Positions 36,882-48,501 of a stretch of 64,000 bases of DNA are shown here, one piece after another. Source of the DNA: Fodinibius sp. Rm-B-1B1-1. GTDB taxonomy: Bacteria > Bacteroidota > Rhodothermia > Balneolales > Balneolaceae. The position numbers and the translations under genes are program-made. The notes beneath the pieces were generated by a model. It made no database searches. It was given only the letters and a program-made list of their open reading frames with translations, and was not told the origin of the DNA. Position 1 is the stretch's first letter; the number at the start of each line of letters is the position of its first letter. The stretch covers positions 1,178,001-1,242,000 of the forward strand of contig NZ_JBCFYD010000001.1 in NCBI RefSeq assembly GCF_038594945.1, read 5' to 3'.

Positions 36882-37433
36882 TTGGATAAAGTGAAAATAA
36901 TGTCGGCCGACGATTTGAATCGCACGTACTTGCGATTCGCTCATCAGTTTTTGGAGCCACATGATAATCCTCAACAATTAGCGATCATTGGAATGCAAAC
37001 CCGTGGCGTGTATATGGGGAAACGCATTGTGCAGCATATCAATGAAAAGTTTAGTTATGATATCGATTTTGGGGTGTTGGATGTTACTTTTTATCGCGAT
37101 GATTTTCGAACAAGACTGAAAATGCCGCAGGTAAAAGTGACCGAAATCCCTTTCGATTTATACGATCGTGATGTAGTGTTGGTAGACGATGTGCTCTATA
37201 CCGGCCGTACTGTTCGATCTGCAATGGATGCATTGATGGATTACGGGCGTCCCCGGACAATCAAATTTTGTTGTATGGTTGACCGCGGTCATCGTGAGCT
37301 GCCGATCTGTGCCGATTATATTGGTACAAAGTTGCCTACGCATGTGCAGGAAGAAGTGCGCGTAAAAGTGAAGGCGCTGGATGATGAAGATGCTGTTTAT
37401 GTCGTAGAAAATGCCGATGAGGAGGCTAAATAA
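36882..37433 (+). CDS. pyrR: PyrR (pyrimidine operon regulator / uracil phosphoribosyltransferase)
   Basis: 183 aa from TTG 36882. The PRPP-binding loop VVLVDDVLYTGRTVRSA is at 98-114. The beta-strand before the family's first helix (KVKIMSADDLNR) requires the TTG (or GTG 36891) rather than ATG 36900, and GAGG at 36872-36875 is a well-placed ribosome site for the TTG. In Firmicutes PyrR binds pyr leader RNA and attenuates transcription; in other lineages its regulatory role is less clear. pyrB starts on the base after its stop, so the two are an operon. No standard PyrR-binding loop was seen upstream, though the leader holds a CTAAAAT/ATTTTAG inverted pair (36784-36815). Confidence 0.9.
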   Translation: MDKVKIMSADDLNRTYLRFAHQFLEPHDNPQQLAIIGMQTRGVYMGKRIVQHINEKFSYDIDFGVLDVTFYRDDFRTRLKMPQVKVTEIPFDLYDRDVVLVDDVLYTGRTVRSAMDALMDYGRPRTIKFCCMVDRGHRELPICADYIGTKLPTHVQEEVRVKVKALDDEDAVYVVENADEEAK

Positions 37434-38396
37434 ATGACTGAAGATATCGAGCTGAAGAATAGCGACCACGATTTTTCTCACAAGCATTTGTTGGGATTGG
37501 CCGATTATTCCAGGGAGGATATTTTATATGTCTTAGAACAGGCCAAATATTTTCGCGAAATTTTAGATCGTCCTGTCCCCAAAGTACCTACGCTTCGCGA
37601 TAAAACGATTGTGAACTTATTTTATGAGGATAGTACGCGCACTCGACTCTCGTTTGAGTTGGCACAAAAAAGAATGGGTGCTGATGTTGTAAACTTTTCC
37701 AAGGGGTCATCCAGTGTTAAGAAAGGAGAATCCCTAAAAGATACCATTCGCAATATCAGTTCTATGAAAATTGATATGGTAGTCACCCGTCACTCGAGTC
37801 CAGGTGTGCCGCACTTTTTAACGCGATGCGTGGATGCAGCCATCATCAATGCCGGCGACGGTGCACATGAACATCCTACCCAAGCGCTGCTCGATATGTT
37901 TACCATGCAGCAGGTATATCCTGATTTAAGCGGTAAGAACATCGCTATTATTGGGGATATTGCGCATAGCCGCGTAGTGCGCTCCAATATTATCGGTTTA
38001 TTGAAGCTGGGGGCCAACGTTACCGTTTGTGGTCCCAAAACAATGATGCCAGCTTATGTTGATGAACTTGGGGTAAATGTATCGTACCATCTTGAAGAAG
38101 TGTTGGATTGGTGTGATATCGCGATGGCGCTACGCATTCAGTTGGAACGCCAAGAAGATGGCACTGAACTTTTTCCCAGTATTCGTGAATACCACCAGCT
38201 TTTTGGGATTACGATGAAGCATCTCGAAAAATATTCCAACTTTACCATTATGCACCCCGGGCCGGTAAATCGTGGCGTAGAAATGGAGAGTGAAGTGGCT
38301 GACAGTGACCGATCTATTATTTTGAGTCAGGTGACAAACGGGGTTGCCGTACGTATGGCCATTCTCTACTTGCTTAGTGGCGGTTCACGCGTTTAG
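37434..38396 (+). CDS. pyrB: Aspartate carbamoyltransferase catalytic subunit
   Basis: 320 aa. Makes carbamoyl-aspartate, step two of pyrimidine synthesis. The carbamoyl-phosphate site STRTRLSFE is at 67-75; later signatures are HPTQALLDMF near 143-152 and the C-terminal HPGPVNRGVEM. The length fits a catalytic chain alone; no pyrI (regulatory chain) follows, so it probably works like Bacillus-type ATCase trimers. It starts immediately after the pyrR stop, with GAGGAGG in the end of pyrR as its ribosome site. Other pyr genes are outside the window. No obvious terminator follows. Confidence 0.95.
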   Translation: MTEDIELKNSDHDFSHKHLLGLADYSREDILYVLEQAKYFREILDRPVPKVPTLRDKTIVNLFYEDSTRTRLSFELAQKRMGADVVNFSKGSSSVKKGESLKDTIRNISSMKIDMVVTRHSSPGVPHFLTRCVDAAIINAGDGAHEHPTQALLDMFTMQQVYPDLSGKNIAIIGDIAHSRVVRSNIIGLLKLGANVTVCGPKTMMPAYVDELGVNVSYHLEEVLDWCDIAMALRIQLERQEDGTELFPSIREYHQLFGITMKHLEKYSNFTIMHPGPVNRGVEMESEVADSDRSIILSQVTNGVAVRMAILYLLSGGSRV

Positions 38397-38476: not shown

Positions 38477-39664
38477 ATGGATCAGGAAATTGGTCGATTA
38501 CAGCATTTGTCATCTTTTGCTTTAGATTATGGTGAGTATCATCATGAATTAAAACCTTTCGTAAATCTTGCCAAAGAAATTACAGATTCTCCTGTTTGCG
38601 AGATCAATATTATCGATGCTTTTAACCAGTGGACGATCTCACGAACGGAGGAGAAGCTGAAAGTTATTCCCCGGGAGCAAAGTGTTTGTTTTGATACTAT
38701 TCAGCAGAATGAACCTTATGAGGTTTCTGATCTCCAAGAGAATAGTCGTTATCAGAATCGGGATTATGTTACGGATGAGCCTTATTTTCGTTATTACTGT
38801 GGGGTACAGCTAACCACGGAAGAAGATAGAAGTATTGGTTCTATTTGCGTGCTCGATCAGAAAACAAAAGAAATTAGCGACCGCCAGAAAAGGCAACTGC
38901 AATATCTGGCCGATCTGGTTGTGCAGCATTTGGAAAAAGATCGTACAACGTATGAGGTTAAAAAACAGGTTCATAAATTGAAGGAGCGATTTAAGACCCT
39001 TAATCACGATCTGAGGAGTCCCATAAATGGCATTGTAGGTATTGTGGATTTGTTAATGAGCGATGATGATACTGTGGAAGTGGACACCGAAGACCTGCTG
39101 ACAATTAAAGATTGCGCTAAAGCTATGGTGGATGAAATTGATGGGGTAATGATACATGATGACCAGGCTTTAACAAATGGTGTTGACAGTATCATGTTGA
39201 ATAAGGTTTTTTCAAAAGTGGAAAACCTGAGCCTGCCTCAAGCGAAGAATAAAGAAATAGATTTTAAGATAGATTATGGTCAAGATTCCAATCAGCCTAT
39301 TTCGGTATATGCTTCCAGGCTGTTAGTGCAAATTTTAAGCAATTTGGTAGCAAATGCTATCAAGTTTACTGGCAGTGGTGGGGAGGTAACAGTAGCGAAC
39401 GAGATCTACGAAGAAGATGACCAACAGTATTCAGAGATTAAGGTGAAAGATAACGGTACCGGAATGCCGGCAGAGGAAGTGGAAAAGTTTAATTCGGGCA
39501 AAAAAGTGACCGGTTCTGTGGGTACAGAGGGCGAAGCCAGTTTTGGGATTGGGCTGCAGCATGTACGCAATTTGGTGTCGGAGTTAAAAGGCCAGATAAC
39601 TGTAGCAAGTAAAGAGGGCAAGGGATCAACGTTTACAGTAACAGTTGCTTTGGCTAATCTCTGA
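38477..39664 (+). CDS. Soluble GAF-domain histidine kinase
   Basis: 395 aa without membrane segments. The GAF domain covers about residues 22-155 (PVCEINIIDAFNQWT, IPREQSVCFDTI, GVQLTTEEDRSIGSICVLD). The phosphoacceptor is His177 in NHDLRSPINGIVG. The HATPase domain spans about 265-392 with N-box LVANAIKFT, G1 DNGTGMP and G2 GIGLQHVRNLV. A ribosome site (TTGAGG) precedes the start. GAF domains often bind small ligands or chromophores; no chromophore Cys is evident. No response regulator gene is adjacent on this strand, so the partner may be elsewhere; the receiver at 42291-42758 is the nearest candidate. Confidence 0.9.
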   Translation: MDQEIGRLQHLSSFALDYGEYHHELKPFVNLAKEITDSPVCEINIIDAFNQWTISRTEEKLKVIPREQSVCFDTIQQNEPYEVSDLQENSRYQNRDYVTDEPYFRYYCGVQLTTEEDRSIGSICVLDQKTKEISDRQKRQLQYLADLVVQHLEKDRTTYEVKKQVHKLKERFKTLNHDLRSPINGIVGIVDLLMSDDDTVEVDTEDLLTIKDCAKAMVDEIDGVMIHDDQALTNGVDSIMLNKVFSKVENLSLPQAKNKEIDFKIDYGQDSNQPISVYASRLLVQILSNLVANAIKFTGSGGEVTVANEIYEEDDQQYSEIKVKDNGTGMPAEEVEKFNSGKKVTGSVGTEGEASFGIGLQHVRNLVSELKGQITVASKEGKGSTFTVTVALANL

Positions 39665-39679
39665 CAGTATAAAAAAGCC

Positions 39680-41092
39680 TTATTGTTCGAATCCTTTTCG
39701 GATCATTTCCCCCCATTCTTTTTTGCCCTTTAAAAAGTCGAAAAGCCCTTTTGTTTGCCACCAAGAGTGGATTTGGCGATAGCCGAGGTTCTCTATAAAC
39801 GAGTAGAAGCCCAGTATAATAACATCTTTAAAGCTACTGTACGTCTTGAACGTTATTTCTTCGGCCAGTACTGCTATCATGGATACAATCATGCCATAGA
39901 TAATGGACAAGGCAAAGAACAGGAGAATAAAGTTGAGGTTGAAAAGAGCGGGCAGAGAAAGGGCAACAATCAGGTAGATATAGCTCAAGATATTTATAAT
40001 AGGGCCCAATAGTTCAAAAATGAGGAAAAAAGGCATCACAAACATACCAATACGTTTATAAGTGGGATTGAAAAGCATATATGCATGCTTCAAAAGTGAA
40101 TCAGCCAGACCGCGATGCCAGCGGTTACGTTGGTTACGCAAACTTTGATAGTCCGTGGGTACTTCGGTCCAGCAAATAGGTTCGGGTAAAAATCGGATCT
40201 GGTAGTCTTCCTTATTGCGCAGATGGTAGCTGTGCAGGCGAATAATAAGTTCAATATCTTCGCCCACCGTATCAGTAAGATATCCCCCCACTTTTAAAAC
40301 GGCGCGACGGTCAAAAATGCCAAAGGCCCCCGATACAATAAGTAGACTTTTAAAATAATCCCAGCCCACTCGGCCGAAGAGAAAGGCGCGGATATATTCT
40401 ACTGATTGCAGTAGAGCCCAAAAGTTCTTCGGGGTATGAATTTCTTTGATTTCTCGATTTTTGAGTTTGCAACCGTTTATAACCCGAACTACTCCTCCGG
40501 CAGCTACCGTATTTTTATGCTCTACAAATGTTTGGATAAGTTTTTTTAACACATTTTGTTCAAGAATAGAATCTGCATCAATAGAGCAAATTAGGTCGGT
40601 TTCTGCAATGTTGATGCCTGCATTTAGAGCATCGGCTTTGCCTCCATTTTCTTTGTCTACCACCGTAAGGGTTGGGATATCCTCTGAGCGGTAGATCGTA
40701 CGTATCTGTTGATGATCAATTTGCTCTTCATAATAAATATCGGTTTCAACAAGACTAAAATGGTCAATAAGTCGCTGTAAGGTATCATCTGGGCTTCCAT
40801 CGTTGATCACAATGATTTCATAAGCGGGGTACTCGAGCTTCAACAGCGATTCTACCGACTCAATAATATTGTCGGCCTCATTGTAGGCCGGTACTAAAAT
40901 GCTTATTGATTTGAAAAGGTCGGTCTTAAAAAGAGCATCAGGCTGAACAACACTACTATGTAAAAACTGTTTTCGAACGTAAAGAAGAGCACCGATTACC
41001 AATGCCAGGTAAACGGTGTTGACCGTAAAAAAATATGCGAGAATAAATTGTTCAATGGTATTAAACAGCGTCCAATTTTCAAGCATGGGCAT
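39680..41092 (-). CDS. Processive GT2 family membrane glycosyltransferase
   Basis: 470 aa from ATG 41092 (41086 is also possible); both overlap the end of the upstream gene, implying coupled translation. One N-terminal membrane helix (about 14-39) is followed by a GT-A domain: VPAYNEADNI, INDGSPDD, the metal motif DAD near 172-174, the catalytic-base ED near 278-279 and the processive-enzyme signature QRNRW (QxxRW) near 321-325. Three or so helices follow (about 344-414). This is the design of polysaccharide synthases such as PgaC, BcsA-like enzymes and E. coli YaiP. It should polymerise a UDP-sugar at the inner membrane and may extrude the chain. It is last in an operon with a response regulator and a HEAT protein. 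Confidence 0.92.
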   Translation of the reverse strand: MPMLENWTLFNTIEQFILAYFFTVNTVYLALVIGALLYVRKQFLHSSVVQPDALFKTDLFKSISILVPAYNEADNIIESVESLLKLEYPAYEIIVINDGSPDDTLQRLIDHFSLVETDIYYEEQIDHQQIRTIYRSEDIPTLTVVDKENGGKADALNAGINIAETDLICSIDADSILEQNVLKKLIQTFVEHKNTVAAGGVVRVINGCKLKNREIKEIHTPKNFWALLQSVEYIRAFLFGRVGWDYFKSLLIVSGAFGIFDRRAVLKVGGYLTDTVGEDIELIIRLHSYHLRNKEDYQIRFLPEPICWTEVPTDYQSLRNQRNRWHRGLADSLLKHAYMLFNPTYKRIGMFVMPFFLIFELLGPIINILSYIYLIVALSLPALFNLNFILLFFALSIIYGMIVSMIAVLAEEITFKTYSSFKDVIILGFYSFIENLGYRQIHSWWQTKGLFDFLKGKKEWGEMIRKGFEQ

Positions 41093-42275
41093 TCTGTTGA
41101 CGGTTATTGAGAGCAATTTTAACACCCGAAGTTATTTCTAAAATAGAATCTAAATAGGCATTTATTTGCCCATTTACCTGCTTTTGAGCCCGCATATTTT
41201 TTACTGTTTGTAAGGTTTTGTGAATGAAATCAGTGAAAAGCCTCAGTTTTAGCTCATTTCCCATTATAAATTCGTTTATAATAGTTTTTCGGATGGAAAA
41301 GGGGGCATCCAGAAGAGTATCCAATAAAAATGAAAGATTTTCAGATGTTCCGAATGTACTAAGTGTTTTAACGCCAGCCAGTCGTATGGATACATCATTT
41401 CCTTGCTTAGTATAATCTCGGATGATAGATGCCGAATCGGTATGGTGGAGTTCACCCAGTGCGGTAATAAGTGCTCGGACAAGCAATACGTTCTTGGTAC
41501 TGTAGTTAATACGCTTGAGGTATTGATGCAAGAACTCGCTGCATCCATGAAATTGTTGGAATCCCATGTATCGAACGATAATACTTTTAGTATGAGGATC
41601 AAGATCTGTCTGTAATAATTCTTCAAAAGCCTTGCGTAATTGGGGACGGTCTTCAATCTTACCGGTGTCGAAGCTGTGAAGCAGTTCCGAAATCATTAAA
41701 TCGGAGACATCATTTCTTCTGAAAAATCGAAGCAGGGCTTTTCGACGGTTCGGCCACCCCTCGGCTGAAAGTAGTGCTTTGGTAGCTGCAAAAGCTAATT
41801 TGAGATTGTACGATTGACTTAATGATACAAGCTTGGCTTGTACGTGATTGCTTTGACTGCCAATATGTTGAAAGTAAAGACAAGCATATATTTTTGAGTT
41901 TGTGGTGAACTCAAACAACTTTTGTTTGTAAAATTCAACGAATAAGGGATGCTCAATTAGATTGTTGAGTCGTTCTCGTTCAATGCCATCCAATAAGTTA
42001 TCCAATTCTTTAAGGAGTTGGATAAAGAAGGAATAGTCCTTAGATCGTTGAGTGATTTTTTTTATGATTTTATCGGCAGAAAGCTGTGGGGTAGAAGACT
42101 CGGCATAATCTAAAAGCAGTGAAAAGAAATAGTCTCGAAACTTTTGTTCATACTGGTCCCAATACTGCATTTTTTTGCGGGTCCAATAGGTATAGCCCAG
42201 CAAAAAGGTAAATAATACAAAAAGGGTAACGATCAGGCCTATTAGGGTATGTATAGCAATGTCAAAGTCAAGCAT
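41079..42275 (-). CDS. Membrane-anchored HEAT-repeat protein
   Basis: 398 aa. A single N-terminal membrane helix (about 10-30, IGLIVTLFVLFTFLLGYTYW) is followed by a cytoplasmic alpha-helical part of roughly 365 residues. HEAT-like pairs are visible in the second half, such as TKSIIVRYMGFQQFHGCSEFLH, KNVLLVRALITALGELHH and SIRLAGVKTLSTFGTSE. No catalytic motif. It lies between a response regulator (15-base gap) and the glycosyltransferase (overlap). HEAT superhelices bind partner proteins, so I infer it couples the receiver to the synthase at the membrane. I cannot name a characterised homologue. Confidence 0.75.
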   Translation of the reverse strand: MLDFDIAIHTLIGLIVTLFVLFTFLLGYTYWTRKKMQYWDQYEQKFRDYFFSLLLDYAESSTPQLSADKIIKKITQRSKDYSFFIQLLKELDNLLDGIERERLNNLIEHPLFVEFYKQKLFEFTTNSKIYACLYFQHIGSQSNHVQAKLVSLSQSYNLKLAFAATKALLSAEGWPNRRKALLRFFRRNDVSDLMISELLHSFDTGKIEDRPQLRKAFEELLQTDLDPHTKSIIVRYMGFQQFHGCSEFLHQYLKRINYSTKNVLLVRALITALGELHHTDSASIIRDYTKQGNDVSIRLAGVKTLSTFGTSENLSFLLDTLLDAPFSIRKTIINEFIMGNELKLRLFTDFIHKTLQTVKNMRAQKQVNGQINAYLDSILEITSGVKIALNNRQQNAHA

Positions 42276-42290
42276 GCTATAATATATAGG

Positions 42291-42758
42291 CTACGCAGCC
42301 TGTGTCAACAGTTTGCGAATACGGGCCGTAAATTCTTTCGGTTGAAATGGTTTGGTAATATATTCATCAGCGGTGAGATCAAAGCCGCGTTCAATATCTT
42401 CTGATCGTGATTTGGCAGAGACCAAAACTACTTTGGTATTTTCGAAGCAAGAATTTTCTCTGATCTTTTTAAGGATTTCAAATCCATTCATGCCCGGTAG
42501 CATCAAATCCAGAATGATAAGTTTGGGTATATTTTTTTCTGCATATTCTAAGGCCTCTATTCCATTGCTTTTGCTCACGATATCATAGTCAAATTCTTTA
42601 GCAATGAGCCGGTTGATCAATTTTCGGCTGAGATCGTCGTCATCAACAACTAATATTTCGTTTTTTGTTACTGATGATTTTTCAGATCCACTAAACCCAT
42701 TATGTGCTGAATTCTTTTTGATACCTGCTAACTTGTGGAACGAACTTATTTTCTTCAT
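42291..42758 (-). CDS. Single-domain response regulator (receiver only)
   Basis: 155 aa: a 33-residue N-terminal extension rich in Ser, Lys and Gly, then a receiver domain with acidic pair Asp39/Asp40, phosphoacceptor Asp84 (LIILDLMLPG), Ser114 and Lys136 (YITKPFQP). There is no output domain, so it must act through protein contact. It is first in the operon with the HEAT protein and the processive glycosyltransferase, suggesting phosphorylation-dependent control of polymer synthesis (inference). No kinase gene is in the operon. The GAF kinase at 38477 lies about 2.6 kb away and is a possible partner. Confidence 0.9.
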   Translation of the reverse strand: MKKISSFHKLAGIKKNSAHNGFSGSEKSSVTKNEILVVDDDDLSRKLINRLIAKEFDYDIVSKSNGIEALEYAEKNIPKLIILDLMLPGMNGFEILKKIRENSCFENTKVVLVSAKSRSEDIERGFDLTADEYITKPFQPKEFTARIRKLLTQAA

Positions 42759-42819
42759 AACTGCCTATGTTTTGCCGTTGTTATTTTATTTGGGCAGTAA
42801 CCTTAGTAATCCCTTTTGC

Positions 42820-42860
42820 CAATGTAATGTTTTTTGTTAGAAAATCTTAATGTTACATTG
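42820..42860. promoter_or_regulatory. CAATGTAA/TTACATTG inverted repeat in the divergent envelope-cluster promoter
   Basis: Exact 8-base arms (42820-42827 and 42853-42860) are 25 bases apart, in the 196-base region between the response regulator (start 42758) and the LtaS-like gene (start 42955). The position allows one regulator to control both divergent units. A weaker TGTGT/ACACA pair lies just beyond it. Confidence 0.35.
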
Positions 42861-42954
42861 AAGTCCTAATATTTTGTGTCGTAATAATCTAACACATTAA
42901 TTTATTTATGGTTTTTGTAGATGTAAATATATGTGAATCAATGCAGTAGCGGAT

Positions 42955-45414
42955 ATGTGTGGAAGTAATAACAAAATAGTTGATATCAGTACCTTTGTTA
43001 GATTATTAATAGGATTATGGGCAACAGTAGCAATTTCTCGTGTCTATGAAGCCTTGGTAGGGATATGGTATTACGGGATTGAGTTTGTATCGGCGGGATA
43101 TGTTAGTTCTGCCTTGGTTCATGATTTCCAGTTGACCGTGTTTTTAGCCATGGTTTTGGGAGCTCTATTTGTTGCCCTCAGTTTTACCGCTGGAAAAATA
43201 TCGTATAATATTATTGCTTACCTTGCCGCCCTTATCATTCTCATTAACTTTTTGTTGATAACCTATTTTGGTGCAACGCAGATCCCTTTGGGAGCTGAAT
43301 TTTGGGCGTATTCTGTTAGTGAAATGACCAATACCGTTCTTGCCGCAGAAAGAGTGTCGTTGGTGGGGTGGCTCTTCTATCCGGTGGTGTATGTGATATG
43401 CTATTGGATTATAAAAAAGTTACTGGTGGTCGAGCTATTCCCACCCCAAAAGAAAAATCGCCCTTTAATTTTTGGAGCGATTGTGCTGTTGGCTTTTGGG
43501 GGTTCCTTTTTTGTTTCTGTTGATGAAGAAGCTACACCAGCTCAAAATGATAAGCAGACGAACAAGCTGGTATTTTTTGTAACAAAAAGTATTGCTTCTG
43601 TTGATTGGTTAGAAGGGCAGCAATTCGCTGGTGATGTAGGTGAATACCCACTATTACGCGATGCCAATTATGAGGATGATACACTCGGCCCATTTTTCGA
43701 AGAGTTTGATCGATCCCCAAATGTGGTGTTTCTGCTGGTGGAAAGCCTGGGAGGAGAATTTGTAGGGCCGTCGGGACAGTGGACAGGCTTTGCGCCTTAT
43801 CTGGATTCCTTGTCCCAACAATCATTGTATTGGGAAAATGGGTTGAGCCTGTCGGGACGTACGTTCGGTATGGTGCCATCCCTATTGGGATCGTTACCTT
43901 TCGGCAATCATGGTTTTATGGAGCTTGGCCCCAACTACCCCGGCCACCAATCTATTATCAGTATTCTCAATCAGAGAGGATATTACACCGCATTTTATAG
44001 CGGTTATGATACATATTTTGATGGTCTCGATTTTTTCCTTGATTACCAGCAGACTGATTTTGTGTTAAATAAAGAGAAATTGCGAGAGCTGTTACCCGAA
44101 GCGGCCCGTACATCGAACTATTGGGGCGTTGATGACAAGACGATGTTGGATTTCTCTGCAAGCTTGTTAGATACGGCGCAAGCATTTCCCCGGCTGGAAA
44201 TTTATCACACTCTGCAAAGCCATTCGCCATTTAATGTGCCGAATTCCCAAAAGTACGAGCAGGAGTTTCACAAAAGGATCAATGAGCTTGATCTGTCAGC
44301 TGAACGTAGAAACGCTTTCCAACGGTATCGGGCCGAGTTAACGACGCTTCTTTTTGCTGATCAGGCAGTTGAGGAATTTATGAAGTCGTATCGGAGACAC
44401 TCCGAATTTGAAAATACCATATTTGTCATAACGGGCGACCATTGGCTTATTCCGGTACCTCAAACATCGGCTATTTCTCGATATCATGTGCCTATAATGA
44501 TCTATTCGCCAAAATTGAAAGAGGCCGCGCATTTTAAGTCGGTAAATACCCATGCCGAAGTAATGCCGTCGTTATTGGCACTGCTTGATCAGAACACAGC
44601 AATGCAGATGCCTGGGTCGGTTCACTGGATGGGTGGGATGATGGATACGGCTCGTCATTTCAGAAGTACACAGTCGGCCCCCCTCATGCGAAATAAAAAC
44701 CAGATTTCTGATTACTTGTATAAAGATCATTATTTGTATGGGGATGAACTCTTCAAGCTTAGTGATGGCCTCAGGCTTATTCCACAAGATAGTTCTTCTG
44801 CAAAAAATCAGTTGCAGAAAAAGCTGAATGAGTTTAAATCGATTAATAAATATGTGGTAGAGCAAAATCGTTTGTACAGGGACAATTCTGATGCCAAAAG
44901 TAGTCCTTATGCTTTTATATCAGATTACGATACGCTATTTACCCGCCTTGATTCGGCCGGGCTATCAATTGATGAGCAATTTCAAGAAGCCCGCCAAGCT
45001 GCCTTTAATGGTAACTATGAGGTGGCAGAAGTTATTTCTAAACGAATTTTATTGCAGGCTCCCGATTATCATGATGTGAGGATTTTATTAGGTAGAGTAA
45101 ATGCATGGCAGGGAAATTATGATGAGGCCGCAGGTTATTTTGAGGAAGTCTTGCAACGAGACCCAAGCTATGCCGATATCTATAACGCTTACTTTGATAA
45201 TGAATTTTGGCAGGGGGATCACCAAAAAGCACTGGATGTAATAAACAGGGGATTGGAGTATCATCCCAAGGATGAACAGCTGTTAGAACGCAAGATAAAA
45301 ATACTTTACGCGATGCAGCGTAAAGATCAGGCCCAACAGTTATTTGATGATCTGCGACAGGCTAATCCAGATTACAAAGGGCTGCAGGAATTAAAAAAGT
45401 ATATTGCAGAATAA
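42955..45414 (+). CDS. LtaS-type alkaline-phosphatase-superfamily transferase with C-terminal TPR block
   Basis: 819 aa. Five N-terminal membrane helices (about 10-190) are followed by a periplasmic sulfatase/alkaline-phosphatase-like domain (about 255-620). The LtaS catalytic set is kept: Glu263 (LLVESLGGE), nucleophile Thr303 (LSGRTFGM), Asp495 and His496 (ITGDHW); His in SRYHVPI is also typical. Such enzymes move phosphoglycerol or phosphoethanolamine from a lipid onto glycans, teichoic acid or lipids. Residues about 660-819 form a TPR block similar to that of the next gene (45459). It is divergent from the glycosyltransferase operon. LtaS itself makes lipoteichoic acid in Gram-positives; here modification of a periplasmic glycan is more likely (inference). 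Confidence 0.88.
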   Translation: MCGSNNKIVDISTFVRLLIGLWATVAISRVYEALVGIWYYGIEFVSAGYVSSALVHDFQLTVFLAMVLGALFVALSFTAGKISYNIIAYLAALIILINFLLITYFGATQIPLGAEFWAYSVSEMTNTVLAAERVSLVGWLFYPVVYVICYWIIKKLLVVELFPPQKKNRPLIFGAIVLLAFGGSFFVSVDEEATPAQNDKQTNKLVFFVTKSIASVDWLEGQQFAGDVGEYPLLRDANYEDDTLGPFFEEFDRSPNVVFLLVESLGGEFVGPSGQWTGFAPYLDSLSQQSLYWENGLSLSGRTFGMVPSLLGSLPFGNHGFMELGPNYPGHQSIISILNQRGYYTAFYSGYDTYFDGLDFFLDYQQTDFVLNKEKLRELLPEAARTSNYWGVDDKTMLDFSASLLDTAQAFPRLEIYHTLQSHSPFNVPNSQKYEQEFHKRINELDLSAERRNAFQRYRAELTTLLFADQAVEEFMKSYRRHSEFENTIFVITGDHWLIPVPQTSAISRYHVPIMIYSPKLKEAAHFKSVNTHAEVMPSLLALLDQNTAMQMPGSVHWMGGMMDTARHFRSTQSAPLMRNKNQISDYLYKDHYLYGDELFKLSDGLRLIPQDSSSAKNQLQKKLNEFKSINKYVVEQNRLYRDNSDAKSSPYAFISDYDTLFTRLDSAGLSIDEQFQEARQAAFNGNYEVAEVISKRILLQAPDYHDVRILLGRVNAWQGNYDEAAGYFEEVLQRDPSYADIYNAYFDNEFWQGDHQKALDVINRGLEYHPKDEQLLERKIKILYAMQRKDQAQQLFDDLRQANPDYKGLQELKKYIAE

Positions 45415-45458
45415 TTGATATGTTTTGTTTACCGTTGCTTACTACAGATGTTAAAGAC

Positions 45459-46694
45459 ATGAAAAAAATATGCTGTTTCTTTTTGTTAGTAATTCTGATA
45501 GGATGCATCCCTATTCGAGGACAAGCTCAAATGGATGAGCTTTCCGTGGATCAGCTTTATGAGCAAGCAAGGACGTTGGCATTTGATGAGGGAGACTATC
45601 AGGCGGCGCGAAAATACGCTTATGCTGCATTAGATCGAAGTCCTGATTATCATGGTATTCGTATTTTTGTGGCGCGGTTATATAGTTGGGAGCAAAACTA
45701 TGAGAAGGCCGAAGAAGAGCTTAATTATGTCTTGGATAAAGATCCTGAAAACCGACAGGCTTTGCTTGCTTTGGTAGATGCTCAGCAATGGTCGGGACAG
45801 TTAGAGACTGCCCTAAAGACGATAGATCGTGCGTTGGCACATTATCCGGGAGATACAGAATTTAGACGTAAAAAAGCAGATATCCTTTATGGGGCAGAAA
45901 ATTATAGCCAGTCTGAAACGATATATCGATCCATTCTTACAGATGATCCGGGTAATAGAAAAGCTCGGGAAGGATTAAAGAGTGCGGAGCTGCAACAAAT
46001 GAAGTATCGGGCTACTGTTTCGTATCGTTATGATCGATTTCGGACCATTTTTGATCCCTGGCATTTTACGCAGTTTGGACTTAGTCGACAGACCGCCATT
46101 GGCTCGGTAACAGGCCGTGTTGAATACGCTCGTCGTTTTGGTTCGGATGGAGCTCAATTTAATATAGATTCGTATCCGTCAATAGCCAAAGGGCTTTATG
46201 CTTATGTCAGTGGGGGATATTCGCAATCTTCTATCTACCCGGATTATCGGTTTGGGCTTTCGTTGTATAAGTCCCTTCCCTCAGCGTTTGAGTTGGAGGC
46301 CGGTATGCGATATCTGGATTTTGGAAGTTCAAAAACGGATATCTATACCATTTCGCTGACCAAGTATTTGGGCAGTTACCTTTTTACAGGTCGATCGTAT
46401 TTGGTACCGTCATCGAGTGGTACTTCAAAATCGATTAATATTACCAGTCGACGATATTTTGGGACGGCTGAAAAGTATGTGAGTTTCAATGCTGGATACG
46501 GTTCTGCTCCTACACAGATAGAATTTTCGAACGATATTGAGGCTCTGAATTCGTGGTCAGTAGGAATCGATGCACAGTTCCCGCTTTCAGAGCGTTGGTT
46601 TCTGGGCGGAAATATTGGATATGATTCCGCGGAGTATCCAAATTTTGTACGAAAACGATTAAGTATGAAGGCAAACGTGTCCTATCGATTTTAG
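45459..46694 (+). CDS. YaiO-family TPR/outer-membrane beta-barrel protein
   Basis: 411 aa from ATG 45459 (an earlier frame to 45420 adds a poor start). A signal sequence (MKKICCFFLLVILIGCIPIRGQAQ) follows; it contains a lipobox-like LIGC, but GQAQ is a good signal peptidase I site and the barrel suggests normal export. TPR units run over about 30-185. Residues about 190-411 are a beta-barrel of YaiO type (SYRYDRFRTIFDPWHFTQFGLSRQT onward, ending with Phe at VSYRF, the classic outer-membrane C-terminal signature). TPR plus barrel recalls PgaA, the exporter of poly-GlcNAc. It overlaps no neighbour and lies 45 bases after the LtaS-like gene. Confidence 0.88.
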   Translation: MKKICCFFLLVILIGCIPIRGQAQMDELSVDQLYEQARTLAFDEGDYQAARKYAYAALDRSPDYHGIRIFVARLYSWEQNYEKAEEELNYVLDKDPENRQALLALVDAQQWSGQLETALKTIDRALAHYPGDTEFRRKKADILYGAENYSQSETIYRSILTDDPGNRKAREGLKSAELQQMKYRATVSYRYDRFRTIFDPWHFTQFGLSRQTAIGSVTGRVEYARRFGSDGAQFNIDSYPSIAKGLYAYVSGGYSQSSIYPDYRFGLSLYKSLPSAFELEAGMRYLDFGSSKTDIYTISLTKYLGSYLFTGRSYLVPSSSGTSKSINITSRRYFGTAEKYVSFNAGYGSAPTQIEFSNDIEALNSWSVGIDAQFPLSERWFLGGNIGYDSAEYPNFVRKRLSMKANVSYRF

Positions 46695-46700
46695 AAAGAG

Positions 46701-47630
46701 TTATTCATCCTTCACCCCAGCCGTAGTAATATTGGGTTCTTTTTTTCTTTTCCAGCGAGCTAATACAATCCCGACAATAACCAGTGCCGATCCGCCGTAC
46801 TGTAACAGCGTTAGTTGCTCGTTGAGCAGAGCTACGCCAAACACAAGGCCCAGCACCGGAACAAGATTTTGATAGGTGGCGGTATGAACAGCTCCTACTG
46901 TTTGTAGGCCATAGTTCCAGATCAGGTAAGCTACTCCAATAGAAAGTAAGCCGCTGTAAACCACTCCACCATAGGCTGCCGCCGAAATTTGTGTCCATTC
47001 CAGTTGGATAATGTTTGGCAAGCCGATCAGAAAAAGAACAATGGCCCCGATAGTAGCCATAATGGCCGAAAATTGAATGGGGGTATATCTGCTTAAAAAT
47101 GACTTGGATAAAATGGTATATCCGCCCCAAACGACTGCTGCGGCAATAATGATGAGATCACCAAGAAAAGTATCTGATCCAAATGAAAAAGGGTTTTTAC
47201 CTCCGGATACAATGAATATGATGCCGGAAAAAGCAGCGATAACACCCAATGTTTTAAAGATGTTCATCCGCTCGAGGTTGAAGAAGTGACTAATGATAGC
47301 GACCCAGATAGGGATAGTTCCAAGCATGACTGCTGCATTGGCGGCATAGGTATAGTCGATGCCAATAATAAAGAGCCCTTGATAAATGAGGTTGCCCAGC
47401 AAGCCCATACCCAGCAGGGGAAGCCAATCTCTTTTGGGAATTGTAAAGAGTTGATTTCGATAGAAAAGAACAATCCAGACGATGGCCGCTGCAAACAAAA
47501 ACCGGAGACCATTAAAGCTGAGCGGGTCGATTTCTGCCAGTGAGTACTTAACGACCGAAAAGTTGAGTGCCCAAATAACGGCTACTAAAAAGAGGGATAA
47601 TTCTACAAGAGATTTTTTGGAGAGGTTCAA
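46701..47630 (-). CDS. DMT superfamily (EamA) transporter
   Basis: 309 aa with ten helices in two EamA repeats (about 12-145 and 158-295). The N-terminal VAVIWALNFSVVKYSL and FNGLRFLFAAAIVWIVLF and the end of repeat two (YQNLVPVLGLVFGVALLNEQLT) are typical. It probably exports a small metabolite at the inner membrane; substrate unknown. It is convergent with the YaiO gene (6-base gap) and divergent from the TetR gene, whose promoter region it may share. It is likely unrelated to the envelope cluster. Its C-terminus (KRKKEPNITTAGVKDE) is basic and cytoplasmic. Confidence 0.9.
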   Translation of the reverse strand: MNLSKKSLVELSLFLVAVIWALNFSVVKYSLAEIDPLSFNGLRFLFAAAIVWIVLFYRNQLFTIPKRDWLPLLGMGLLGNLIYQGLFIIGIDYTYAANAAVMLGTIPIWVAIISHFFNLERMNIFKTLGVIAAFSGIIFIVSGGKNPFSFGSDTFLGDLIIIAAAVVWGGYTILSKSFLSRYTPIQFSAIMATIGAIVLFLIGLPNIIQLEWTQISAAAYGGVVYSGLLSIGVAYLIWNYGLQTVGAVHTATYQNLVPVLGLVFGVALLNEQLTLLQYGGSALVIVGIVLARWKRKKEPNITTAGVKDE

Positions 47631-47745
47631 TGGTAGTGATGTAATTAGAAAAGAAAATTAAACCATAAAGGTAGGGGATAATTGGCAAAGTGTCTTGGAG
47701 TATTACAATTATTAATGTGGGAATGGGAATATTTTAATATCAAGT

Positions 47746-47777
47746 GTTGGATTTTCTAATAGTTACCCTTAACTTTG
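47746..47777 (+). promoter_or_regulatory. Bacteroidetes-type -33/-7 promoter for the TetR gene
   Basis: GTTG at 47746-47749 and TAACTTTG at 47770-47777 match the TTTG and TAnnTTTG elements with 20 bases between, ending 37 bases before the tetR start. The -7 element is exact; the -33 element has one mismatch. Confidence 0.5.
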
Positions 47778-47786
47778 GTCACTTTC

Positions 47787-47799
47787 TGACTAACAGTCA
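47787..47799. promoter_or_regulatory. Palindromic operator candidate before the TetR gene
   Basis: TGACTAACAGTCA is a perfect 5-3-5 palindrome just downstream of the -7 element, where a bound repressor would block transcription. An overlapping GTCA-N5-TGAC repeat starts at 47778. Position and symmetry fit autorepression by the TetR protein. Confidence 0.55.
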
Positions 47800-47814
47800 T
47801 TTATATAAGAACAA

Positions 47815-48501
47815 ATGGGTAAAAAGGATCGAAAGGCGCGTGAGAAAGAGCGTCGAAGGAATCAAATACTTGATGCTGCGGAAAAGGTTATTTTTTCTCA
47901 AAGCCTGGAGCAAGCAACAATGGATGAAATTGCCGAGGAAGCCGAGCTCAGCAAGGGTACATTGTATCTGTATTTTAAAAATAAAACGGAACTTTATATT
48001 GCTATTACCCAACGCGGGTCGGATCTGCTGAACAGCAAATTCGCCAAAGTATTTTCGGGAGCTCATGACCATACTGGGCTCGAGCTAATTCGAAAAATGG
48101 GCGAAACCTATTTGGATTTTGTTCGTGAATATCCCAATTACTTTACGGCATTTATGTATTATGAGTCGCTGAGTGACGTAAAAGTCCTTGAAGATAGCAC
48201 CTATGCAGAACAATGTGATCAAAATAGGCGTGAAGCATTGAACTTTATGATACGTGCTTTGCAGATCGGTATGCAGGACGGTTCTGTTGATGATCAATAT
48301 GAGCCTAAAGAGTTGGCGACGATTATTTTTGCCAGTACAAGAGGACTTACGGCCATGGTTCATGCCAGTGGAAGAGGTCATCATGCTCAGCTTTTGGATG
48401 AAATTGAAGTGGGAGTGAGTACCATATTCGAAAACTTTCTGAACCTATTAGTGAAGGGGATGGCTTCTCCAAATGAATTAAAAAATTCTGAAAATGGTTA
48501 G
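47815..48501 (+). CDS. TetR/AcrR family transcriptional regulator
   Basis: 228 aa. The N-terminal DNA-binding domain (about 10-60) has the helix-turn-helix MDEIAEEAELSKGTLYLYFKNKTELYIAI. The remaining all-helical part is a ligand-binding and dimerisation domain, with an AcrR-like C-terminal third. TetR proteins are mostly repressors released by small ligands. Next to it, in the same direction, is a TolC-adaptor-RND operon, its likely target. A perfect palindrome (47787-47799) lies in its own promoter and an imperfect relative follows just after its stop codon. Ligand unknown. Confidence 0.92.
   Translation: MGKKDRKAREKERRRNQILDAAEKVIFSQSLEQATMDEIAEEAELSKGTLYLYFKNKTELYIAITQRGSDLLNSKFAKVFSGAHDHTGLELIRKMGETYLDFVREYPNYFTAFMYYESLSDVKVLEDSTYAEQCDQNRREALNFMIRALQIGMQDGSVDDQYEPKELATIIFASTRGLTAMVHASGRGHHAQLLDEIEVGVSTIFENFLNLLVKGMASPNELKNSENG

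What the first reader, a model, noticed from the sequence alone, without database searches (positions are those of the whole stretch)
39680..46694. Candidate undescribed envelope-glycan system: receiver, HEAT protein, processive GT2, LtaS-type transferase and YaiO barrel
Seen: five genes in two divergent units. One encodes a receiver-only regulator, a membrane-anchored HEAT protein and a processive QxxRW glycosyltransferase (with overlapping GT start). The other encodes an LtaS-type enzyme with a TPR tail and a TPR/outer-membrane barrel. Known: processive GT2 synthases pair with TPR-barrel exporters (PgaC/PgaA), and E. coli has a yaiO-yaiP locus with a YaiO barrel and a GT2; LtaS-family enzymes add phosphoglycerol or phosphoethanolamine. 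Inference: the block is a complete synthesis, modification and export pathway for a phospho-decorated polysaccharide, gated by phosphorylation of the receiver through the HEAT protein. A deacetylase or glycan-binding lipoprotein, usual in poly-GlcNAc systems, is missing.
Basis: partly seen in the sequence, partly recalled or inferred. Interest (0 to 1): 0.75.

Follow-up and report, generated by a model that had tools for sequence, protein, structure and literature searches.

The report
Phospho-relay-controlled exopolysaccharide secretion system
The window carries a compact, widely conserved but apparently undescribed gene set that probably makes, phosphate-decorates and exports a surface sugar polymer, switched by a phosphorylated receiver protein and a HEAT-repeat partner instead of the usual second messenger c-di-GMP.

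Summary
In detail: REC, membrane-anchored HEAT protein and QxxRW GT2 form one unit (39680-42758, - strand); an LtaS-type transferase with TPR tail and a TPR/YaiO barrel form the divergent unit (42955-46694). In 395 phylum genomes, GT2s of this family sit directly behind a HEAT gene in 66 of 68 loci read. Conversely, 36 of 40 close LtaS homologues lie within 8 kb of this GT2 (37 counting a contig break), and 12 of these are single open frames joining GT2 and LtaS (read in full in three). In several lineages all five genes are one colinear operon, REC>HEAT>GT2>LtaS>YaiO. The REC-HEAT-GT2 core recurs in Bacteroidota, Acidobacteriota, Bacillota, Proteobacteria, Bdellovibrio and others. Modelled GT2 best matches hyaluronan, cellulose and chitin synthases; modelled YaiO best matches cellulose exporter BcsC and PelB. 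Best reading: synthase-dependent polysaccharide secretion with a phosphotransfer/HEAT regulatory module; LtaS is an optional but dedicated glycan-decorating partner. Polymer chemistry, donor lipid and REC-HEAT-GT2 contact are inferred, not shown. No paper describing it was found in the held library.

The parts
38477..39664 (+).
   Evidence: Pfam HATPase_c 77 bits, HisKA 25 (just below cutoff), GAF 22; H-box NHDLRSP, no TM. Same place in G151 and uncultured Aliifodinibius; absent there in G081 and G345. A related kinase is directly upstream of REC in G104 and beside it in G369
39680..41086 (-). Membrane GT2 synthase (likely ATG start; the ORF extends to a GTG at 41125)
   Evidence: NDGS D109, DAD D183/D185, GED D290, QRxRW Q332-W336: QR, R335, W336, D109 and D290 in 142/142 homologues. 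AF2 model pLDDT 91.9; best PDB matches hyaluronan synthases, then BcsA and chitin synthases
41079..42275 (-). HEAT-repeat protein with one N-terminal TM helix
   Evidence: HEAT_2 32.2 bits, 37/38 homologues match HEAT_2; immediately upstream of GT2 in 72/80 and 66/68 loci
42291..42758 (-). Single-domain receiver (REC) with about 34-residue N-terminal extension
   Evidence: Response_reg 95.6 bits; acidic pair, phospho-acceptor D84 (114/124), S/T114, K136 (120/124) conserved
42759..42954 (.). 196-bp divergent intergenic region between the two units
   Evidence: read directly; promoters not tested
42955..45414 (+). LtaS-type membrane transferase (N-terminal TM region, alkaline-phosphatase-superfamily domain, C-terminal TPR tail)
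   Evidence: Sulfatase PF00884 121 bits; E263, T303, H423, D495-H496, R509 conserved in the family; TPR tail resembles the YaiO TPR region; fused to GT2 in L149, L154, L159
45459..46694 (+). TPR plus 14-strand YaiO outer-membrane barrel (ORF from 45420; likely start 45459)
   Evidence: YaiO PF19413 193 bits, TIGR04390 171 bits vs cutoff 32; AF2 pLDDT 93.5; best PDB matches BcsC, then PelBC

Best explanation
This is a synthase-dependent exopolysaccharide secretion system. The GT2 polymerises a nucleotide sugar and threads the chain through the inner membrane; the LtaS-type enzyme, on the periplasmic side, transfers a phospho-alcohol group (phosphoglycerol more likely than phosphoethanolamine) from a phospholipid to the emerging glycan; the TPR/YaiO barrel guides the chain across the periplasm and outer membrane. 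Control is post-translational: a kinase (probably the neighbouring GAF kinase) phosphorylates the stand-alone receiver, which acts through the membrane-anchored HEAT scaffold on the GT2, a role that PilZ, PgaD or MshEN domains play in c-di-GMP systems. Supported here: gene content, catalytic residues, conserved linkage, fusions, modelled folds. Inferred: polymer identity, donor lipid, REC-HEAT-GT2 contacts, direction of control.
For: Conserved HEAT-GT2 adjacency with mostly -4/-8 overlaps; REC within three genes upstream in 66/80 and 58/68 loci. QRxRW and the other catalytic motifs invariant or nearly so; GT2 model nearest to Chlorella virus and Xenopus hyaluronan synthases, BcsA and Chs1. YaiO model nearest to BcsC and PelBC, with OmpG and PgaA also listed; the three Bacillus-group loci (monoderms) keep REC-HEAT-GT2 but show no YaiO. 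LtaS: 40 hits at E<=5e-71, then a gap to 7e-27; 36/40 within 8 kb of the GT2, 12 as single open frames, fusion sequence read in three; LtaS presence goes with YaiO presence on the tree (about 8:0, median p 0.008). REC phosphorylation residues intact. In Priestia the REC is replaced by an Hpt/REC/GGDEF/REC protein, so the slot is a signalling input. Precedent: single-domain regulator EpsW~P activates the EPS-initiating enzyme EpsZ post-translationally, apparently by direct contact (PMC12802240).
Against: No biochemical or genetic data. Kinase linkage is variable (18/68 loci have a kinase within two genes upstream of REC on the same strand; absent beside the block in G081 and G345; overall HK density near the GT2 is hardly above flank density). 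LtaS and YaiO are each missing near many GT2s, partly because contigs end. HEAT could serve assembly rather than control. The GT2 model was made alone, so a complete translocation channel is not proven.
Confidence: 0.62

Rival explanations
1. Polysaccharide synthesis and export as above, but HEAT is a structural scaffold that positions the synthase, and REC acts elsewhere (for example on transcription partners or on HEAT-dependent localisation) rather than gating catalysis.
For: HEAT solenoids are generic protein-binding scaffolds (established knowledge); HEAT sequence diverges far faster (mostly 10-20% identity to the window protein) than GT2 (mostly 37-55%); REC is missing beside some HEAT-GT2 pairs.
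Against: REC is next to HEAT in most loci and is replaced in Priestia by a REC-GGDEF-REC input protein; phospho-acceptor residues are kept.
Confidence: 0.2
2. The GT2 builds a periplasmic or membrane-anchored glycan (OPG-like or teichoic-acid-like) that LtaS decorates, and YaiO is not an exporter but an outer-membrane anchor or sensor.
For: LtaS profile hits are to LTA synthase and OPG phosphoglycerol transferases, which act on periplasmic or anchored glycans; Bacillus-group members lack YaiO yet keep the core.
Against: YaiO model is TPR plus 14-strand barrel, nearest to polysaccharide exporters BcsC and PelB; YaiO accompanies the cassette within four genes in 50/68 phylum loci; GT2 has no detectable OpgH similarity.
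Confidence: 0.12
3. Two independent neighbouring units: a REC-HEAT-GT2 operon and an LtaS-YaiO operon that merely abut.
For: Divergent orientation in the window; HEAT-GT2 occurs widely without LtaS.
Against: Colinear REC>HEAT>GT2>LtaS>YaiO operons in L141, L164, L166, L168, L057, L068; 12 open frames joining GT2 and LtaS and 36/40 LtaS near GT2.
Confidence: 0.03

Closest known systems
E. coli Bcs cellulose system (BcsA, BcsC, BcsG)
   Same: Processive GT2 plus TPR-barrel exporter plus alkaline-phosphatase-superfamily transferase that decorates the polymer with a phospho-group; YaiO model nearest to BcsC and GT2 model close to BcsA
   Different: GT2 only 20% identical to BcsA over the core; transferase has no BLAST similarity to BcsG; no PilZ/c-di-GMP domain, BcsB or BcsZ found beside it; REC-HEAT instead
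PNAG Pga/Ica system
   Same: GT2 family; PgaC is the nearest NCBIfam model (155 bits) and nearest E. coli GT2 (26% identity); TPR-barrel exporter
   Different: Score far below the PgaC cutoff (155 vs 422); no PgaB or PgaA homologue near any of 148 loci; REC-HEAT and LtaS instead
E. coli yaiO-yaiX-yaiP-yaiS
   Same: YaiO barrel with GT2; genus g2 relatives also have PIG-L as in YaiS
   Different: YaiP GT2 23% identical; no REC, HEAT or LtaS gene in the E. coli locus, and its YaiO is short (257 codons), without room for the TPR part
E. coli NfrBA (phage N4 receptor glycan)
   Same: GT2 synthase with dedicated outer-membrane partner and a dedicated local signal input (PMC8669469)
   Different: NfrB is controlled by c-di-GMP through MshEN; negligible GT2 similarity
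Myxococcus EpsW-EpsZ
   Same: Single-domain response regulator activates EPS synthesis post-translationally (PMC12802240)
   Different: Acts on a phosphoglycosyl transferase of a Wzx/Wzy pathway, with no HEAT protein and no processive synthase
LtaS / OpgB phosphoglycerol transferases
   Same: Same fold family and catalytic residue pattern with Thr nucleophile
   Different: Far below curated cutoffs (30 vs 970 and 29 vs 572 bits); TPR tail, and fused or linked to a polysaccharide synthase

Membership tests
Processive GT2 polysaccharide synthases | D, DxD, ED/TED and QxxRW catalytic motifs | tested here: met
   QRxRW 142/142, D109 142/142, D183 142/142, D185 141/142, ED290 142/142
Processive GT2 polysaccharide synthases | GT-A domain embedded with TM helices forming a translocation path | tested here: inconclusive
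   AF2 model matches hyaluronan, cellulose and chitin synthases over most of its length (TMq 0.46-0.62, high rmsd); a pore itself was not measured
Processive GT2 polysaccharide synthases | makes a polymer | not testable with these tools
   needs biochemistry
PNAG (Pga) system | PgaC equivalog score | tested here: not met
   155 vs cutoff 422 bits
PNAG (Pga) system | PgaB deacetylase and PgaA porin | tested here: not met
   none near any of 148 loci
Bcs cellulose system | BcsA with PilZ, and BcsG-type pEtN transferase | tested here: not met
   no PilZ in the GT2; transferase has no BcsG similarity
YaiO outer-membrane proteins | YaiO barrel domain | tested here: met
   PF19413 193 bits vs 23.9; TIGR04390 171 vs 32
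LtaS-type alkaline-phosphatase-superfamily transferases | Thr nucleophile and metal-binding E, D, H residues (pattern recalled from LtaS) | tested here: met
   T303 29/32, E263 28/32, D495 31/32, H496 32/32
LtaS (lipoteichoic acid synthase) proper | equivalog score / LTA polymerisation | tested here: not met
   30 bits vs cutoff 970; activity untested
Single-domain response regulators | complete phosphorylation site, no output domain | tested here: met
   only Response_reg found; D40, D84, S114, K136
c-di-GMP-controlled synthases | PilZ or MshEN domain in the synthase, or a GGDEF/EAL input protein | tested here: not met
   none in the five window proteins; a GGDEF input appears in the Priestia relative

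The most novel reading that the evidence does not exclude
A phylum-spanning, previously unrecognised class of exopolysaccharide synthase whose activity is gated by protein phosphorylation: phospho-REC docks on a membrane HEAT adaptor that activates the GT2. It would be a counterpart to c-di-GMP/PilZ control, with a subclass that decorates the polymer through an LtaS-type enzyme, sometimes fused to the synthase.
Probability: 0.45. Interest if true: 0.8.

Novelty: new variant of a known kind. Interest (0 to 1): 0.62.

Why it matters
Textbook synthase-dependent polysaccharides (cellulose, PNAG, alginate, Nfr glycan) are switched by c-di-GMP. A conserved REC-HEAT module next to a synthase family spread from Bacteroidota to Bacillota would be a second general way of switching polysaccharide synthesis, by phosphotransfer. 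GT2-LtaS fusion proteins would also give a directly testable case of teichoic-acid-type chemistry coupled to a Gram-negative polysaccharide synthase.

Tried and rejected
Literature: ten searches for REC/HEAT/GT2, YaiO family, LtaS and PgaC combinations found no description of this cassette; subscription journals and preprints are not covered. First HEAT search with one sequence found only 9 of 158 genomes: HEAT diverges too fast, so the GT2 was used as anchor. PNAG, Bcs, YaiP and NfrAB membership rejected by score or content. An accessory family ('X', 380-1096 aa) linked in about 27 loci has no Pfam or NCBIfam identity and was not modelled. The Bdellovibrio and Acidobacteria sulfatase-fold genes (L043, L060, L063) are not the window's LtaS type: Ser in place of the nucleophile Thr, and in L043 nearest choline-sulfatase and EptA models.
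Full report
What is there. The block lies between pyrR/pyrB genes (36882-38396) and an EamA/TetR pair (46701-48501) in a 3.4-Mb genome related to Aliifodinibius/Fodinibius (Balneolaceae); the GT2 is 82-84% identical to Aliifodinibius proteins. On the minus strand REC (42291-42758), HEAT (41079-42275) and GT2 (39680 to 41086, or 41125 by the longest ORF) are spaced by 15 bases and by an 8-base overlap. On the plus strand LtaS-type (42955-45414) and YaiO (ORF 45420-46694, likely start 45459) follow a 196-bp divergent region. Pfam confirms every domain.

Enzymes. GT2: catalytic D109, D183, D185, ED290 and QRxRW are essentially invariant in 142 homologues. Its AlphaFold model (pLDDT 91.9) finds hyaluronan synthases first, then BcsA and chitin synthases. 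It is not PgaC (155 vs 422 bits), and is 26%, 23% and 20% identical to E. coli PgaC, YaiP and BcsA. LtaS-type: TM region, periplasmic-type domain with E263, T303, H423, D495-H496 and R509 conserved, and a TPR tail resembling the TPR part of YaiO. Its weak named profile hits include LTA synthase and OPG phosphoglycerol transferases and not phosphoethanolamine transferases, and it has no similarity to BcsG; hence phosphoglycerol is the likelier group, by inference only. YaiO: ten-helix TPR part plus 14 long strands (pLDDT 93.5); best solved matches are BcsC (two entries) and PelBC, with OmpG and PgaA also listed. REC keeps the complete phosphorylation site and has no output domain. HEAT: 37 of 38 homologues match HEAT_2 and 129 of 138 have an N-terminal TM helix.

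Linkage. Two locus sets were read: 80 loci from a scan of GTDB species genomes with the GT2 alignment and 68 loci from a 395-genome sample of the phylum. HEAT is immediately upstream of GT2 on the same strand in 72/80 and 66/68; many of the exceptions are cut contigs or high-GC ORF-calling failures. REC lies within three genes upstream in 66/80 and 58/68. The HEAT-GT2 junction is usually an overlap of 4 or 8 bases, suggesting translational coupling. The scan titles span Balneolota, Bacteroidota, Ignavibacteria, Acidobacteria, Aminicenantes, Bdellovibrio, Alpha- and Gammaproteobacteria, Solirubrobacter, Desulfosporosinus, Neobacillus, Priestia and others.

Is LtaS part of it? Searching the same 395 genomes with the LtaS-type protein without its TPR tail gives 40 hits at E<=5e-71, then a gap to 7e-27 where distant paralogues begin. 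36 of the 40 lie within 8 kb of a cassette GT2. One more (G081) is split by a contig end inside the HEAT gene. Twelve are single open frames of 1135-1273 codons covering GT2 and LtaS; three of these were read and show complete GT2 and LtaS motifs in one protein (L149, L154, L159). Exceptions: G326, G297 and a second copy in G093. Colinear REC>HEAT>GT2>LtaS>YaiO operons occur in L141, L164, L166, L168, L057 and L068. On the GT2 tree LtaS changes state at least 21 times (missing data inflate this), and its presence goes with YaiO presence (about 8:0 in independent pairs, median p 0.008).

Regulation. The kinase sits beside the block in the window, in G151 and in uncultured Aliifodinibius, and a related kinase is directly upstream of REC in G104 and beside it in G369, but G081 and G345 lack it there. 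18 of 68 phylum loci have a kinase within two genes upstream of REC, yet overall kinase density near the GT2 is only slightly above flank density, so this is a lead rather than a proof. In Priestia the REC is replaced by an Hpt/REC/GGDEF/REC protein, which fits a signalling-input slot. EpsW~P activating EpsZ in Myxococcus is a direct precedent for a stand-alone receiver switching polysaccharide synthesis post-translationally (PMC12802240). That phospho-REC acts through HEAT on the GT2 remains inference.

Known or new. No held paper describes a REC-HEAT-GT2 cassette. Each part is of a known kind (GT2 synthase, YaiO barrel, LtaS-type transferase, single-domain receiver), and the whole works like Bcs, Pga and Nfr systems without being a member of them: PgaC score, PgaA/PgaB presence, BcsG similarity and PilZ were tested and not met. 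I therefore rate it a new variant of a known kind, with the regulatory module the most novel part.

Noticed in passing
L020:5554-7146 and L021:12668-14262: In genus code g2 relatives the operon continues YaiO, GDSL hydrolase, PIG-L deacetylase, echoing E. coli yaiO-yaiP-yaiS and hinting at an N-acetylhexosamine polymer there.
   Followed up: partly
L097:5995-7158, L084:3183-4340, L100:10922-14170, L136, L137, L145, L151 and others: A family without Pfam or NCBIfam identity (about 385 aa in Bacteroidota, 776-1096 aa in other groups) is repeatedly linked to the cassette; conserved acidic and aromatic residues suggest a glycan-active enzyme.
   Followed up: partly
L100:6860-8476: In Priestia aryabhattai the REC slot holds an Hpt/REC/GGDEF/REC protein, so phosphotransfer and c-di-GMP may meet at the same synthase.
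   Followed up: partly
L149:9117-12554, L154:569-4003, L159:7072-10506: Single proteins of about 1145 aa joining the GT2 synthase and the LtaS-type transferase.
   Followed up: yes
L043:5498-9994: Bdellovibrio qaytius has a sulfatase-fold gene, YaiO, REC, HEAT and GT2 in one strand-wise run; the sulfatase-fold protein is of another subtype with Ser in place of the Thr nucleophile.
   Followed up: partly
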